Below are positions 42,702 through 46,812 of a DNA stretch of 46,812 nucleotides, in pieces. Origin of the DNA: Solirubrobacter phytolaccae (GTDB taxonomy: Bacteria; Actinomycetota; Thermoleophilia; Solirubrobacterales; Solirubrobacteraceae); contig NZ_JAPDDP010000063.1 in NCBI RefSeq assembly GCF_027587195.1, positions 1 to 46,812 of the forward strand, written 5' to 3'. Positions within the stretch are counted from its first letter, which is position 1; every line of letters starts with the position of its first letter. Position numbers and translations under genes: made by a program. Below the pieces are notes generated by a model that was given only the letters and a program-made list of their open reading frames with translations, had not been told where the DNA came from and searched no databases.

Positions 42702-43485
42702 TGCGCTCGAGGTAGCCGGCCTCGCACGCGACCCAGAGCGCGTTGTCGACGCCGACCGCCAGGCCGTGCGGCTCAGCGCCGTGCTCGAGCTCGACCTCCG
42801 CGTACTCGCCGTCGTCGCTCACGTGGGCGACGGCGTGGCCGCCCCACAGGCTCACCCAGACGCCGTCGGCCTGGGCGGGGATGACGGCGTGCGGCTTGGC
42901 GCCGGCCGCGAGCGGGAGCTCCTGGACGGCGTCGTCGACGCCGATCCGGCCGAGCTGGTCGGCGAGGATCTCGGTGAACCAGACCGCGTCGTGGGTGCCG
43001 CAGATGCCGACCGGGCCGGCCTGCTTGGTGGGCAGCTCGCGCACGGTGAGGTTTCCGTCGGTCGTGATCCGGCCGACCGAGCTCGTCGCGTTGAGCGTGA
43101 ACCAGAGGGCGCCGTCGGGGCCGGTGGCGATCATCGCCGGCGTCCCGGGCGCCGCGTACCACTGGAACTTGCCGTTGAAGCGGCCGATCGTGTTCTCCGC
43201 GGTGAACCAGACCGCGCCGTCCGGGCCTTCGACGATCCCGTACGGGTTGCCGCTGACCTTGGTCGTAGTCACGATCCCGTCGGGCGTGATCCGGCCGACC
43301 CCGCCCGCGAACGTGAACCACCCGTGCGGCGTGATCTGCATCGGCTTCTTACCGGCTTTATGGCGCGTGACTTCGCCGTCCATCGTCACGCGGGCAATCT
43401 GGCCCGCGTCGGCGAGCGTCACCCACAACGCACCGTCCGGGCTCGCCGCGACCGCGTACGGGCCGCCGTCGAGCGCTACCCGCAT
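42694..43485 (-). CDS. Virginiamycin B lyase (Vgb)-like seven-bladed beta-propeller
   Basis: 263 residues with repeated propeller blades of the form GPDGAxWFT...IGRIT (e.g. SPDGALWVT, GPDGAVWFT, GPDGALWFT, THDAVWFTE). Vgb opens the streptogramin B ring by elimination. The residues corresponding to its catalytic set appear present: His199 (AKPHAV), Glu238 and His240 (GAEPHGL) and Glu255 (WVACEAGY). The protein is slightly shorter than Staphylococcus Vgb (~295) and has no signal peptide. ATG 43485 lies inside the last codons of the RNA helicase gene (10-bp overlap), so translation is coupled. An alternative role as an ordinary cytosolic propeller cannot be excluded. Confidence 0.8.
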   Translation of the reverse strand: MRVALDGGPYAVAASPDGALWVTLADAGQIARVTMDGEVTRHKAGKKPMQITPHGWFTFAGGVGRITPDGIVTTTKVSGNPYGIVEGPDGAVWFTAENTIGRFNGKFQWYAAPGTPAMIATGPDGALWFTLNATSSVGRITTDGNLTVRELPTKQAGPVGICGTHDAVWFTEILADQLGRIGVDDAVQELPLAAGAKPHAVIPAQADGVWVSLWGGHAVAHVSDDGEYAEVELEHGAEPHGLAVGVDNALWVACEAGYLERIS

Positions 43486-46016
43486 TTGAACGACTGCGTG
43501 CGGATGACCGGCTCGCCCGCGGCGTCGGAGGCGTCGAGGTCGACTTCGGCGACGATCGCCCAGTCGTGGTTGCCCTCGGGGTCGTTGATGATCTGGCGGA
43601 CGGTCCAGACGCGCGGGTTCGTGGTCGTGTCGACGACGAACAGCTCCGGCGAGCGCGCTTCCGGGCCGGCGTCGAGCGTCTCGTGCTCGTCCCAGTACGC
43701 GCCGAGCGCCTCTTCCCAGTTGTGCGCGCGCATGGTCGGGCGCTCGCCGCCTTCGAGGCCCGCCAGGCGGCCGAACTCGTCGCGGCTCGCCAGCTGCACC
43801 TTCTGGAACATCGCGTTGCGGATCATCACGCGGAACGCGCGCACGTTGGCGGAGATCGGGCGCACCGGGGCGAGCTCCTCGCCGGCCGCGACGGCCTCGG
43901 CGGCGCGCTGCACGGCCTCCGGGTCGGTCAGCGCCTCCCACTCGTCCAGCAGGCTCGAGTCGGTCTGGCGGATCATCTCGCCGAGCCACTCGACGATGTC
44001 GTCGAGCTCGTCGGTCTTGTGGCGGTCCGGCACGGTCTGGCGGAGCGCGCGGTAGGTGTCGGACAGGTAGCGCAGGACCGCGCCCTCGGAGCGCTGCACG
44101 CCGTAGTGGGCGACGAACTCGCTGAACGTCTGGCCGTTCTCGTACAGATCGCGCACGACCGCCTTGGGGGACAGGTCGTCCTCGGACACCCACGGGTGCG
44201 TCTCGCGGTACTGGCCGAGCGCGTGCTTGAGCCCTTCCTCGAGCGGCTTCGGGTAGCTGACGTCCTCGAGCAGCTCCATCCGCTCCTCGTACTCGATGCC
44301 CTCGGCCTTCATCGCCTGGATGGCCTCGCCGCGGGCCATCTTCGACTGCGCCATCAGCACGGGGAACGGGTCGTCGAGGATGGCTTCGACGACGCTGAGG
44401 ACGTCCAGCGTGAACGTCTCCGACTCGGTGTCGAGCAGGTCGAACGCGGCGAGCGCGAACGATGCCAGCGGCTGGTTGAGCGCGAAGTCCTGCTGCAGTG
44501 CTGGCGCGAGCTCCAGCGTGCGACCGTCCTCGTCGGGCGGATCGAGGCGCTCGAGCACGCCGGACGCGAGCAGCTCCTCCTTGAGGGACTCGGCCTGGCC
44601 CAGCAGGCGGGTCTTGCCGCGCTCGTCCTCATGGCTGTCCTCGATGAGGGTGCGCAGGACCTCGTCGGAGTCGCCGCGCTGGTTGATCACGTTGAGGATC
44701 ACCGCGTGGTTGACGCGCATGCGGGAGACGAGCGACTCGGGCGTGGCGTGGCGCAGGCGCTCGAAGGTCTCCTCGGTCCAGCTGACCGCGCCGTCGGGCG
44801 CTTTGACCTTCTGGACGCGCTTCTTCTTGACGGGGTCGTCCCCCGCCTTGGCGACGCGGCGCGCGTTCTCGATCGTGTGCTCGGGCGCCTGGACGACCAC
44901 GTAGCCGGACGTGTCGAAGCCCGCGCGTCCCGCTCGCCCCGCGATCTGATGGAACTCGCGGGCCTTGAGGATGCGGTGGTTGGTGCCGTCGAACTTGGCG
45001 AGGCCGGTGAAGACGACGGTGCGGATCGGGACGTTGATGCCTACGCCGAGCGTGTCCGTGCCGGCGACCACCTTGAGGAGGCCGGTCTGCGCGAGCTGCT
45101 CGACGAGCCGTCGGTAGCGAGGGAGCATGCCGGCGTGGTGGACGCCGATGCCGGCTCTGACTAGGCGGGACAGCGTCTTGCCGAAGCCGGCGGTGAAGCG
45201 GAAGGCGCCGATCGCGTCGGCGATCGTGTCGCGCTCCTCGCGTGTGCAGAGCTTGGCGGACAGGAGCGACTGGGCTCTCTCGAGGGCGCTGGCCTGCGTG
45301 AAGTGGACGACGTAGACGGGTGCCTGGTCGGCCTTGACGAGGTCCTCGATCAGCTCGTGCAGCGGCTCGAGGCTCCACGTGAAGTGCAGCGGGACGGGGC
45401 GTTCGGCGGTGTCGACGAGGGCGGTGTCACGGCCGGTTCGCTGCGTGAGGTCTTCGCGGAGGTCGCTGACGTCGCCGAGCGTGGCGCTCATCAGCAGGAA
45501 CTGGGCCTGGGGGAGCGTGAGCAGCGGCACCTGCCACGCCCAACCGCGCTGCGGCTCGGCGTAGAAGTGGAACTCGTCCATCACGACCTGGCCGATGTCG
45601 GCGTCGGCGCCTTCTCTCAGCGCGATGTTGGCCAGCACTTCGGCGGTGCAGCAGATGATCGGGGCGCGGGAGTTGACGCTCGCGTCGCCGGTGAGCATGC
45701 CGACGTTCTCGGCGCCGAAGATCGCGCACAGGGCGAAGAACTTCTCGGAGACCAGGGCCTTGATCGGGGCCGTGTAGTACGTGATCTCGTCGGCGGCCAG
45801 CGCGGCGAAGTGCGCGGCGATCGCGACCATCGACTTGCCGCTGCCGGTCGGCGTGGCGAGCACGACGTTGTTCCCGCTGAACAGCTCGATCGCCGCTTCT
45901 TCCTGATGTGGATAGAGCTGCAGGCCCTGCGTCTCGCTCCAAGCCATGAACGCCTCGTACAGGGCGTCCGGGTCGCTGTCGCGGGGGAGGGCCTCGATGA
46001 GGCCGCCGGCGGTCAT
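43476..46016 (-). CDS. Ski2-like DEAD/DEAH RNA helicase with DUF3516 C-terminal region
   Basis: 846 residues. The helicase core is at ~35-370: Q-like LYPHQEEAAIEL, Walker A ATPTGSGKS (54-62), TAPIKALVSEKF, GDASVNSRAPIICCTAE, DEFH box (147-150), LLMSATLGD, then VHHAGMLPRYRR, AGTDTLGVGINVP and QIAGRAGRAGFD. The ~450-residue C-terminal half is the DUF3516 region of actinobacterial Ski2-like helicases (SRMRVNHAVILNVINQRGD...VRAFRVMIRNAMFQKVQLASR; shown partially). Likely RNA remodelling or decay. A CATACT -10-like box sits 9 bp before the ATG. Its 3' end overlaps the Vgb-like gene. Confidence 0.92.
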   Translation of the reverse strand: MTAGGLIEALPRDSDPDALYEAFMAWSETQGLQLYPHQEEAAIELFSGNNVVLATPTGSGKSMVAIAAHFAALAADEITYYTAPIKALVSEKFFALCAIFGAENVGMLTGDASVNSRAPIICCTAEVLANIALREGADADIGQVVMDEFHFYAEPQRGWAWQVPLLTLPQAQFLLMSATLGDVSDLREDLTQRTGRDTALVDTAERPVPLHFTWSLEPLHELIEDLVKADQAPVYVVHFTQASALERAQSLLSAKLCTREERDTIADAIGAFRFTAGFGKTLSRLVRAGIGVHHAGMLPRYRRLVEQLAQTGLLKVVAGTDTLGVGINVPIRTVVFTGLAKFDGTNHRILKAREFHQIAGRAGRAGFDTSGYVVVQAPEHTIENARRVAKAGDDPVKKKRVQKVKAPDGAVSWTEETFERLRHATPESLVSRMRVNHAVILNVINQRGDSDEVLRTLIEDSHEDERGKTRLLGQAESLKEELLASGVLERLDPPDEDGRTLELAPALQQDFALNQPLASFALAAFDLLDTESETFTLDVLSVVEAILDDPFPVLMAQSKMARGEAIQAMKAEGIEYEERMELLEDVSYPKPLEEGLKHALGQYRETHPWVSEDDLSPKAVVRDLYENGQTFSEFVAHYGVQRSEGAVLRYLSDTYRALRQTVPDRHKTDELDDIVEWLGEMIRQTDSSLLDEWEALTDPEAVQRAAEAVAAGEELAPVRPISANVRAFRVMIRNAMFQKVQLASRDEFGRLAGLEGGERPTMRAHNWEEALGAYWDEHETLDAGPEARSPELFVVDTTTNPRVWTVRQIINDPEGNHDWAIVAEVDLDASDAAGEPVIRTQSFKCG

Positions 46017-46171
46017 GTGTCCAGTATGGAAGGAACGGGCGCGGTACTCGGTGGGCGTGTCCCGAGTGGTGCCTCTGTTGCCGCCGGAGCGGGCGGATTG
46101 CGCGTGGAGTTCAGCTCGGGTGGCGCGCGGCGGGCTCCGTGCGCGTCGGGGAGCACACCGTCGGGCGTCGC

Positions 46172-46231
46172 GTCAAGAAATTCGTGTGCCCACGGTGGTG
46201 TGGCGTGCGGCCGGGTCACGAGTTTCTTGAC
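46172..46231. repeat. Interrupted inverted repeat (15-bp arms)
   Basis: GTCAAGAAATTCGTG (46172-46186) pairs with CACGAGTTTCTTGAC (46217-46231), 14 of 15 bases, around a 30-nt loop. The arms share the GTCAA/TTGAC core with the hairpins downstream. Confidence 0.65.
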
Positions 46232-46316
46232 CCGTCGCGGTCGGTGCGCTCTTGTGCGGGTGAGCGGCTGCGCCGGTTTGCGCCCGGGCGCGGGCCGCGC
46301 GCTCGTCCCTGGGGTG

Positions 46317-46458
46317 ATCCGTCAGTTGACCCCCGTATAGGGGGTCAAGTGACGGATGACGGGAGCGATCCGTCAGTTGACGCCCGTGAGGGGCGTTAAG
46401 TGACGGATGACGGAGCGCTCCGTCGGTTGGGGCCCTGTGGGGGCCCAAAGTGACGGAT
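46317..46458. repeat. Tandem array of three REP-like hairpins (period ~50-51 bp)
   Basis: Unit 1 arms ATCCGTCAGTTGACCCCC/GGGGGTCAAGTGACGGAT (46317-46334, 46340-46357, loop GTATA). Unit 2 arms ATCCGTCAGTTGACGCCC/GGGCGTTAAGTGACGGAT (46368-46385, 46391-46408, loop GTGAG). Unit 3 arms CTCCGTCGGTTGGGGCCC/GGGCCCAAAGTGACGGAT (46418-46435, 46441-46458, loop TGTGG). The outer ATCCGTCA/TGACGGAT arms are nearly constant, the ninth pair is a G-G mismatch in all three, and inner pairs change in a compensatory way. Spacers of 9-10 bp carry GGAG two bases before units 2 and 3. Confidence 0.85.
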
Positions 46459-46547
46459 GACTCGCACGTGGTGGGAATGGCGTGTTGGCCCGTGTGCGCG
46501 GGCGCTTTCCGGCGCAGCCGGCTCATTGGGACGTCAGCGCAGCGGCG

Positions 46548-46615
46548 CCGGGTCTGTCAAGCCCGACCCGAAGGGCGGCGAAGCCGTCGCGTAGCGATCG
46601 CCTTGACAGGCCCGG
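46548..46615. repeat. Long inverted repeat with structured interior
   Basis: CCGGGTCTGTCAAG (46548-46561) pairs with CTTGACAGGCCCGG (46602-46615), 13 of 14 bases, extendable by G-T pairs. The 40-nt interior contains further small palindromes (GGCGAAGCC and GCGATCGC). It shares the GTCAA/TTGAC core with the other repeats here. Confidence 0.65.
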
Positions 46616-46677
46616 TGTCGCGGAGCTACCCGAACACGGCCACGCACCCCGAGCTGGCACGAGCGGCACGCCACACC

Positions 46678-46741
46678 GATCGCGCAGCGGGGCGATCGCG
46701 CAGCGGGGCGATGGCGCGGCGGGGCGATGGCGCGGCGGTCT
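46678..46741. repeat. Four tandem 16-bp direct repeats
   Basis: GATCGCGCAGCGGGGC at 46678-46693 and exactly again at 46694-46709, then GATGGCGCGGCGGGGC (46710-46725) and GATGGCGCGGCGGTCT (46726-46741). Diverged GATGGCGCGGCGG fragments continue to the window end. Confidence 0.75.
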
Positions 46742-46812
46742 GGCGTGACGGCCCGGCGAGCCGATGGCGCGGCGGCCCGGCGTGGCGCGGCGTAGCGGGC
46801 GATGGCGCGCGG

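What the first reader, a model, noticed from the sequence alone, without database searches (positions are those of the whole stretch)
46317..46458. Tandem hairpin array with compensatory stem changes and a conserved G-G mismatch
Three adjacent units each fold into an 18-bp stem with a 5-nt loop. The outer eight bases are almost constant. Inner stem pairs differ between units but stay paired: pair 15 is C-G in unit 1 and G-C in unit 2; pairs 13 and 14 are A-T and C-G in units 1 and 2 and G-C in unit 3. Loops differ freely. All three keep an unpaired G opposite G at position 9. Covariation within a tandem array argues that structure, not sequence, is maintained, and the fixed mismatch looks like a recognition feature. 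GGAG sits two bases before units 2 and 3 (GGGG before unit 1), recalling the GTAG/GGAG foot of REP elements mobilised by RAYT transposases. No such transposase is in the window. This may be an undescribed REP-like family or a structured RNA.
Basis: partly seen in the sequence, partly recalled or inferred. Interest (0 to 1): 0.8.

Follow-up and report, generated by a model that had tools for sequence, protein, structure and literature searches.

The report
Mosaic palindrome element with mismatched hairpins
The three hairpins are the core of a long non-coding, palindrome-built DNA element that is scattered between genes in this bacterium and some close relatives; its hairpins keep their shape while their sequence changes, and what spreads it is not known.

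Summary
Three 41-nt hairpins stand at 46317-46357, 46368-46408 and 46418-46458, with G opposite G at pair 9 in all three. They are not isolated: 30 copies at 20 places are known in this genome, and here they form the core of a ~575-bp palindromic mosaic element (about 46102-46676). I handled 50 related sites: 47 whole or partial composite elements and 3 single hairpins. They sit mainly at gene 3' ends (25 of 42 sites with two visible neighbours are convergent) and are present or absent at the same site in sister species. At the window's own site G002 has an element with three other hairpins, G001/G006 a single 41-nt hairpin, and G003, G004 and G005 none. Across the genus 8 of 17 stem pairs show two-sided changes, and the G.G mismatch recurs inside stems of different sequence.

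Best reading: a new REP/BIME-like mosaic family. The strict REP label fails: no GTAG foot, no unpaired CGTC tag, no linked RAYT (the genome's two Y1 genes have palindromes of their own). Compensation is real but incomplete (pair 12 unpaired in 10 of 34, pair 15 in 7 of 34). Strand polarity holds within type B (14 of 14) but not across types. The mobilising enzyme and any RNA role are unknown.

The parts
46102..46676 (.). whole composite (type A) element; ends approximate; right neighbour gene not visible because the contig ends at 46812
   Evidence: homology of 6 further own sites (C94, C131, C91, C36, C83, C24) along most of this span; end inverted repeats; folds far better than shuffles (folded as 46096-46680: z -9.6 DNA, -10.5 RNA)
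46112..46125 (.). left terminal inverted repeat
   Evidence: pair I6, 86% complementary to 46643-46656
46165..46238 (.). left subterminal hairpin (arms 46165-46186 and 46217-46238, GTCAAGAAATTCGTG / CACGAGTTTCTTGAC)
   Evidence: pair I2; similar modules recur in the ends of type A and type B elements
46265..46520 (.). long imperfect stem (arms 46265-46289 and 46496-46520) that encloses the three hairpins
   Evidence: pair I1, 25 nt, 84% complementary; pairing of these arms appears in both predicted folds
46317..46357 (+). core hairpin 1
46368..46408 (+). core hairpin 2
46418..46458 (+). core hairpin 3 (weaker: mismatches at pairs 1, 9 and 12)
46549..46615 (.). right subterminal hairpin (arms 46549-46562 and 46602-46615, CTGTCAAG / CTTGACAG)
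   Evidence: read from sequence and from the fold
46643..46656 (.). right terminal inverted repeat
   Evidence: pair I6
43476..46016 (-). neighbouring helicase-like gene (846 aa); its start codon lies ~85 bp from the left end of the element
   Evidence: the helicase name rests on my reading of its motifs, no family search was made

Best explanation
The array is the core of a non-coding, REP/BIME-like mosaic element. Shown: the element is dispersed, structured and present or absent at given sites between sister species; its hairpins keep pairing while sequence changes. Inferred: the hairpins act as single-stranded DNA (for instance on the lagging-strand template) and are recognised by a structure-reading enzyme, for which the A-G-T-T / A-A-G-T stretch with its G.G mismatch is a contact point while the rest of the stem need only pair. 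This would let elements be copied into new gaps between genes and let core hairpins be exchanged within an existing element. They pile up behind stop codons, mostly between convergent genes, because insertions are tolerated there. Any effect on transcription or mRNA ends would be secondary. The enzyme is unidentified.
For: Dispersal: 27 exact hairpins, reversed control 0; with three degenerate ones 30 copies at 20 places; 47 composite or partial sites. Presence/absence: at site L119 own genome has a ~415-bp element, G001/G006 a 41-nt hairpin, G002 an unrelated palindrome, G004 a 76-bp spacer without one by eye, G005 2 bp between the aligned flanks, G003 a different left flank; at the window site own has three hairpins, G002 an element with three other hairpins, G001/G006 one hairpin, G003-G005 none in the ~640 bases read by eye. 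Core differs in a shared frame: L024/L223, L020/L244, L019/L224. Structure kept: 34 distinct genus hairpins, 92.9% of cells paired against 83.9% shuffled, 8 of 17 pairs with two-sided change, covariation 0.239 against 0.091, 0 of 500. Mismatch: among 69 hairpins with TT/AA inside and at least 7 of 8 outer pairs, one locus per place, 44 are G.G or C.C, 20 only paired, 5 other; 11 outer-arm sequences carry it. Polarity within type B: 14 of 14. Context: 25 of 42 convergent against 9 of 41 gene pairs in the window, Fisher p 0.0007; 63 of 84 facing gene ends are 3' ends. In E. coli REPs a mid-stem mismatch is needed for TnpA-REP activity and only one strand is bound (PMC8266576, passages).
Against: No mobilising enzyme found; Y1 genes carry other palindromes and do not track the elements. 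No clear target-site duplication at L119 (by eye). No gene was called inside any of the 50 own sites. Polarity is not general: of 25 loci scored, 14 agree, 6 are opposite (type A L014-L017, where only one end is of the scored kind, and L239, L241 of G004) and 5 have two like ends and cannot be judged. Copies share recent ancestry, so counts of mismatch, polarity and covariation overstate independent events; the CM carries G at both sides of position 9, which favours finding G.G, and many loci were fetched because they hold the hairpin. Many inner pairs fail: pair 12 in 10 of 34, pair 15 in 7, pair 16 in 5. Within the own genome alone the number of two-sided pairs (3) is no more than in shuffles. 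Position 9 is paired in 4 of 13 G001/G006 hairpins and in all 3 G159 ones read. Even in E. coli the mismatch bases were only moderately selected by SELEX. The gene caller and element limits were home-made and the background came from one contig.
Confidence: 0.5

Rival explanations
1. Bidirectional transcription barrier: the element is kept because its hairpins in RNA end or protect transcripts of convergent genes.
For: Strong placement behind stop codons and between convergent genes; very stable RNA folds.
Against: No U-tract terminator-like site in the window's element. At L126 and L028 a separate terminator-like hairpin (my reading, not scanned) precedes the element, and at L126 G001 has such a hairpin and no element. 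Elements are absent at the same sites in some sister species. The window copy's visible neighbour is a gene start.
Confidence: 0.21
2. Pairing is kept by mutation, not selection: template switching in quasi-palindromes and recombination among copies rewrites one arm from the other.
For: Arms are long and close; L015 unit 1 looks like a hybrid of two unit types with a broken pair 15; core hairpins differ between elements in a shared frame.
Against: Such correction would be expected to erase the G.G mismatch too, which is present in 29 of 30 own copies and in hairpins with other outer arms.
Confidence: 0.15
3. Double-stranded binding site: two inverted half-sites (GTCASTTGA) for a dimeric DNA-binding protein.
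For: Columns of GTC, TT, AA and TGAC are invariant in 34 hairpins and the two arms are nearly symmetric apart from position 9.
Against: Inner and outer pairs change on both sides while pairing stays; hairpins in the same role have quite different half-sites.
Confidence: 0.08
4. A conserved structured RNA transcribed from the element.
For: RNA fold z -10.5; orientation of the core is kept within type B.
Against: No Rfam family (none; only a snoRNA hit at E 0.77, 18.8 bits against a cut-off of 50), no promoter-like site, core sequences differ completely between species at shared sites.
Confidence: 0.06

Closest known systems
BIME (bacterial interspersed mosaic elements) of enterobacteria
   Same: Mosaics of palindromic units and other short modules, non-coding, between genes (partly recalled).
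   Different: No GTAG-tagged REPs; the core units of one array all face the same way inside an inverted-repeat frame, whereas BIME REPs alternate in orientation (abstract of PMC2817692 as shown in the listing).
GTAG-type REPs with TnpA-REP/RAYT, group 2 (E. coli type)
   Same: Long imperfect hairpin with a conserved mid-stem mismatch (PMC8266576, passages).
   Different: No GTAG foot; mismatch is a single G.G, not AA/GC; no linked transposase gene found.
CGTC-tagged REPs (Di Nocera 2013, PMC3733652)
   Same: Short palindromes that contain CGTC and have no known transposase.
   Different: There the CGTC tag is unpaired and the stem 8-9 bp; here CGTC lies in the paired stem of 17-18 bp.
MITEs (ERIC, Correia and the like; features partly recalled)
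   Same: Terminal inverted repeats, a few hundred bp, no gene, intergenic, strong fold.
   Different: No target duplication seen at the one site compared; several nested hairpin modules; variable core.
Y1 transposases with palindromic ends (TIRYT of Di Nocera 2013)
   Same: Present in the same genomes.
   Different: Their palindromes (such as TAAAGAGGGACAGTCCCTCTTTA) are unrelated to this hairpin.

Membership tests
GTAG REP superfamily | unpaired GTAG at the foot of the hairpin | tested here: not met
   0 of the 26 copies with flanks printed
GTAG REP superfamily | associated RAYT (Y1) gene flanked by the same repeat | tested here: not met
   2 own Y1 genes; hairpin model finds 0 matches in 12 loci covering 10 of 13 Y1 genes; own palindromes instead
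GTAG REP superfamily | many dispersed extragenic hairpin copies | tested here: met
   30 copies at 20 places
CGTC REP superfamily | unpaired CGTC tag, stem 8-9 bp, loop 4-5 | tested here: not met
   CGTC paired, stem 17 pairs plus G.G, loop 5; definition from PMC3733652 (abstract and passages)
BIME | mosaic of palindromic units and other conserved modules, intergenic | tested here: met
BIME | units are REPs in alternating orientation | tested here: not met
   units of one array all face the same way
MITE | terminal inverted repeats without gene | tested here: met
   many sites show only one clear end
MITE | target-site duplication and a related autonomous transposon | tested here: inconclusive
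   no clear duplication at the one site compared in detail; no gene called inside any of 50 own sites
integron attC site | RYYYAAC / GTTRRRY core boxes (recalled consensus) | tested here: not met
   hairpin ends are ATCCGTC / GACGGAT (by eye); no search for an integrase was made
intrinsic terminator | GC-rich hairpin followed by a U-tract | tested here: not met
   0 sites in window 45900-46812; other copies not scanned
known structured RNA | match to an Rfam family | tested here: not met

The most novel reading that the evidence does not exclude
A hairpin-cassette system: an unknown single-strand-specific enzyme recognises the A-G-T-T/A-A-G-T stretch with its G.G mismatch and exchanges whole core hairpins inside a stable palindromic frame, so that orthologous elements keep site, frame and hairpin number while every hairpin sequence is replaced (window site: three hairpins in own and three other ones in G002).
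Probability: 0.13. Interest if true: 0.8.

Novelty: new variant of a known kind. Interest (0 to 1): 0.5.

Why it matters
Tagged REP families reside mainly in proteobacteria (PMC3733652, abstract), and the GTAG ones are tied to RAYT enzymes. Here is a family in another lineage (which I take, by recall only, to be actinobacterial) that shares the mid-stem mismatch but lacks the GTAG foot and any visible RAYT link, and whose core hairpins differ at fixed sites between sister species. If right, it asks for another, structure-reading route by which palindromes spread, and the sister species offer ready presence/absence comparisons to find it.

Tried and rejected
RAYT link: tested with PF01797 in own and eight other genomes, the hairpin model on 12 loci covering 10 of the 13 Y1 genes and blastn of five element queries against 15 Y1 loci (one 34-bp, 85% match at E 8e-4 in L012, about 4 kb from the Y1 gene, not followed). 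Rejected as shown, not as impossible.

Rfam: nothing over cut-off. Terminator and promoter consensus: nothing.

Phage or virus source: the hairpin pattern with the right spacer gave one palindrome with another spacer (L194), the end pattern 0.

Named-organism scan: my pattern allowed spacers of 14-18, whereas the real spacer is 19. The single scan of genome contigs was therefore wasted; its 23 hits are other palindromes, 21 of them paired at position 9. Hence no organism is named from a database. G044 is a single contig of 6,359,369 bases, a size I recall for Conexibacter woesei; the genus may be Solirubrobacter. Both are recall and guess.

Single-mismatch census with strict rules: own 11 GG/CC, 6 GT/AC, 4 GA/CT among 21; other genomes 3, 3, 1 among 7. 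It points the same way but is small.

Mended on checking: the first mismatch count (45 G.G/C.C, 5 other, 33 paired registers) held places fetched twice and hairpins scored in several registers; one search replaces it. Polarity had been stated too widely; the six opposite loci are now told, and my odds for the best explanation and the novel case are lowered a little for that.

Literature searched. None of the listed titles and abstract starts describes such elements in this lineage; the library lacks most subscription journals. I saw the outline/abstract and passages of PMC3733652, and passages of PMC8266576 and PMC6006769; other papers only as listings.

Full report
What is there. The window is a whole contig (C129) of a 7.74-Mb draft genome in 169 contigs. 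Units 1 and 2 fold as 8 pairs, a G.G mismatch, 9 pairs and a 5-nt loop; unit 3 is weaker, with further mismatches at pairs 1 and 12.

Copies. A pattern for the constant outer arms matches 27 times in the genome and its reversed control never. Three degenerate copies (C91:78508, C36:159, C161:25368) make 30 copies at 20 places: three places with three units (C94, C129, C131), four with two (C24, C36, C83, C91) and thirteen with one. The pattern fixes G on the 5' side of position 9; the covariance model does not fix it but was built on mostly G.G copies. With that caveat 29 of 30 are G.G.

The larger element. The array is the centre of a much longer repeat. In the window it runs from about 46102 to 46676: terminal inverted repeats, a subterminal hairpin with GTCAAG...CTTGAC at each side, and a 25-nt imperfect stem (46265-46289 with 46496-46520) around the three hairpins. 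It folds far better than 100 shuffles (z -9.6 as DNA, -10.5 as RNA). Six further own sites match most of it. A second form (type B) has ends like AACGGCTGATCACACC...GGTGTGCTCGCCGTT and one core hairpin; 27 ends match a strict pattern, reversed control 0. Other elements share these ends but hold other cores: GGGGTGTG...CACACCCC pairs, or hairpins such as CACGCGAGCGTTCAGTT...AAAGTGAACGCTCGCGTG. I handled 50 own sites, their limits set by hand: 47 whole or partial composite elements and 3 single hairpins (L021, L029, L030). Eight lie at contig edges, as the window's does, so the true number may be higher.

Where they sit. With a home-made codon-usage gene caller, 42 of 50 sites have both neighbours: 25 convergent, 13 tandem, 4 divergent; 8 are at contig edges. 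In the window 9 of 41 neighbouring gene pairs are convergent (Fisher p 0.0007). Of 84 gene ends that face an element, 63 are 3' ends (p 5e-6). At the 25 convergent sites 14 left and 15 right ends lie within 15 bp of the stop codon. Fewer divergent sites than background is not significant (4 of 42 against 8 of 41, p 0.23). The window's own copy is an exception: its visible neighbour is a gene start.

Relatives. The hairpin model finds matches in 11 of 201 genomes, own included: G001 and G006 of the same genus at 12 places each (the same flanks where compared; a thirteenth, L215, in G006), G002 at one, G159 at four, G106 at two, and G044, G051, G142, G196, G199 at one each. The type-B query gives 96 matched pieces in G004, 49 in G002, 18 each in G001 and G006, none in G003 and G005 (pieces, not elements).

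Same sites in sister species. At the window's site (upstream of the helicase-like gene) G002 has an element with the same end and arm (31 bp at 87% and 75 bp at 91% identity) but three other core hairpins, the first of them poorly paired; G001/G006 have one 41-nt hairpin with G.G; in G003, G004 and G005 the ~640 bases I read show none. At L119 the own genome has a composite element, G001/G006 a single hairpin, G002 a different palindrome, G004 a 76-bp spacer without it by eye, G005 2 bp between the aligned flanks; in G003 the left flank differs. At L118 and L133 too, an own composite without the 41-nt hairpin faces a single 41-nt hairpin in G001; at L023 an own composite with it does. At L024, L020 and L019 the frame is shared with G002 or G004 and the core differs. 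Apart from L119, L126 and the window site, which I searched for, these are the sites that happened to share flanks among the loci already fetched, not a random sample.

Is structure kept? For the own genome alone (21 distinct hairpins) the case is modest: three pairs with two-sided change, no more than in shuffles (mean 3.1), though with more cells (15 against 5.4); pair 12 fails in 10 of 21 and pair 15 in 6 of 21. One unit (L015) looks like a hybrid of two unit types. With G001/G006 and G002 added (34 distinct: 20 own, 13, 1) it is strong: 8 of 17 pairs with two-sided change (9 of 500 shuffles reach that), 46 cells against 16.4, covariation 0.239 against 0.091 (0 of 500), and every slid control far lower. 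Each hairpin was read on the strand that scores better with the model; the 40-nt own copy was dropped so that lengths agree, and hairpins of other genera were left out.

The mismatch. Among the fetched loci, stems with TT/AA next to position 9 and at least 7 of 8 outer pairs number 69 with one locus per place: 44 have G.G or its complement C.C, 20 are only paired, 5 have another mismatch (one of these is paired in another register). By distinct sequence it is 32, 20 and 5 of 57. G.G stands in 11 outer-arm sequences, three from other families of the order. The common core is A-G-T-T/A-A-G-T. Many of these loci were fetched because they hold the hairpin, and many are kin. Relatives are less strict: 9 of 13 in G001/G006 and 4 of 11 elsewhere are G.G, and the three G159 hairpins read are C-G. 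So the mismatch is a recurrent feature, not a universal one.

Polarity. In type B the two ends differ, which gives a direction; the G.G strand has the same direction in 14 of 14 own elements, with three kinds of core hairpin (at L023 I set aside one chance end match inside the left gene). By the same rule six other loci come out opposite: type A L014-L017, where only one end is of the scored kind, and L239 and L241 of G004. Five more have two like ends and cannot be judged. Polarity is thus a property of type B, perhaps by descent.

Mechanism. A mismatch that persists inside a stem whose other pairs vary is what a structure-reading, single-strand protein would see. The precedent is E. coli TnpA-REP, which needs the mid-stem mismatch of its REP and binds only one strand, though the mismatch bases were only moderately selected by SELEX (PMC8266576, passages). 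I therefore prefer a REP/BIME-like mobile DNA reading. What is shown is dispersal, presence/absence and pairing. The enzyme, the single-stranded intermediate and the copying step are inferred. The Y1 enzymes of these genomes are poor candidates: the ten examined carry their own palindromes and the distribution of Y1 genes does not follow the elements.

Known or new. It works like a BIME/REP system but fails the defining GTAG and RAYT tests, and it fails the CGTC-REP definition (PMC3733652, abstract and passages). My literature searches list no account of such elements in this lineage; they cover an open-access library only.

Noticed in passing
window 46673-46812: A degenerate 16-bp tandem repeat (GGGGCGATGGCGCGGC) fills the end of the contig right behind the element; the assembly may have broken there.
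   Followed up: no
L024 about 1985-2043; L227 about 1900-1955: Runs of the hexamer AACGGC, which is also the tip of the type-B element, stand directly before the element end.
   Followed up: no
L009, L010, L275, L276, L278-L281, L283, L284: Ten Y1 transposase genes of the genus have short palindromes with A/T-rich tips (such as TAAAGAGGGACAGTCCCTCTTTA) on at least one side, like the TIRYT class (by eye).
   Followed up: partly
L247 (G002) near 1443-1501: At site L119 G002 has an unrelated palindrome AACATGAAGGTGCCTGGCACCTTCATGTT between the same convergent genes.
   Followed up: no
L029 2710-2750 and L207 2004-2044: In both species a single hairpin sits near a gene start; by my reading its 3' arm would supply an in-frame GTG start codon, though the caller starts the gene at L029:2916.
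   Followed up: no
L170, L175, L177, L186, L188: The same perfect 34-bp palindrome TCCGTCAGTTGGGCCTGCAGGCCCAACTGACGGA occurs in Pandoraea, Burkholderia (two places) and Ralstonia soli (two places) records.
   Followed up: no
L173, L178, L180, L191: A palindrome TCCGTCAGTTC...GAACTGACGGA occurs three times in Candidatus Electryonea clarkiae and once in Candidatus Hatepunaea meridiana.
   Followed up: no
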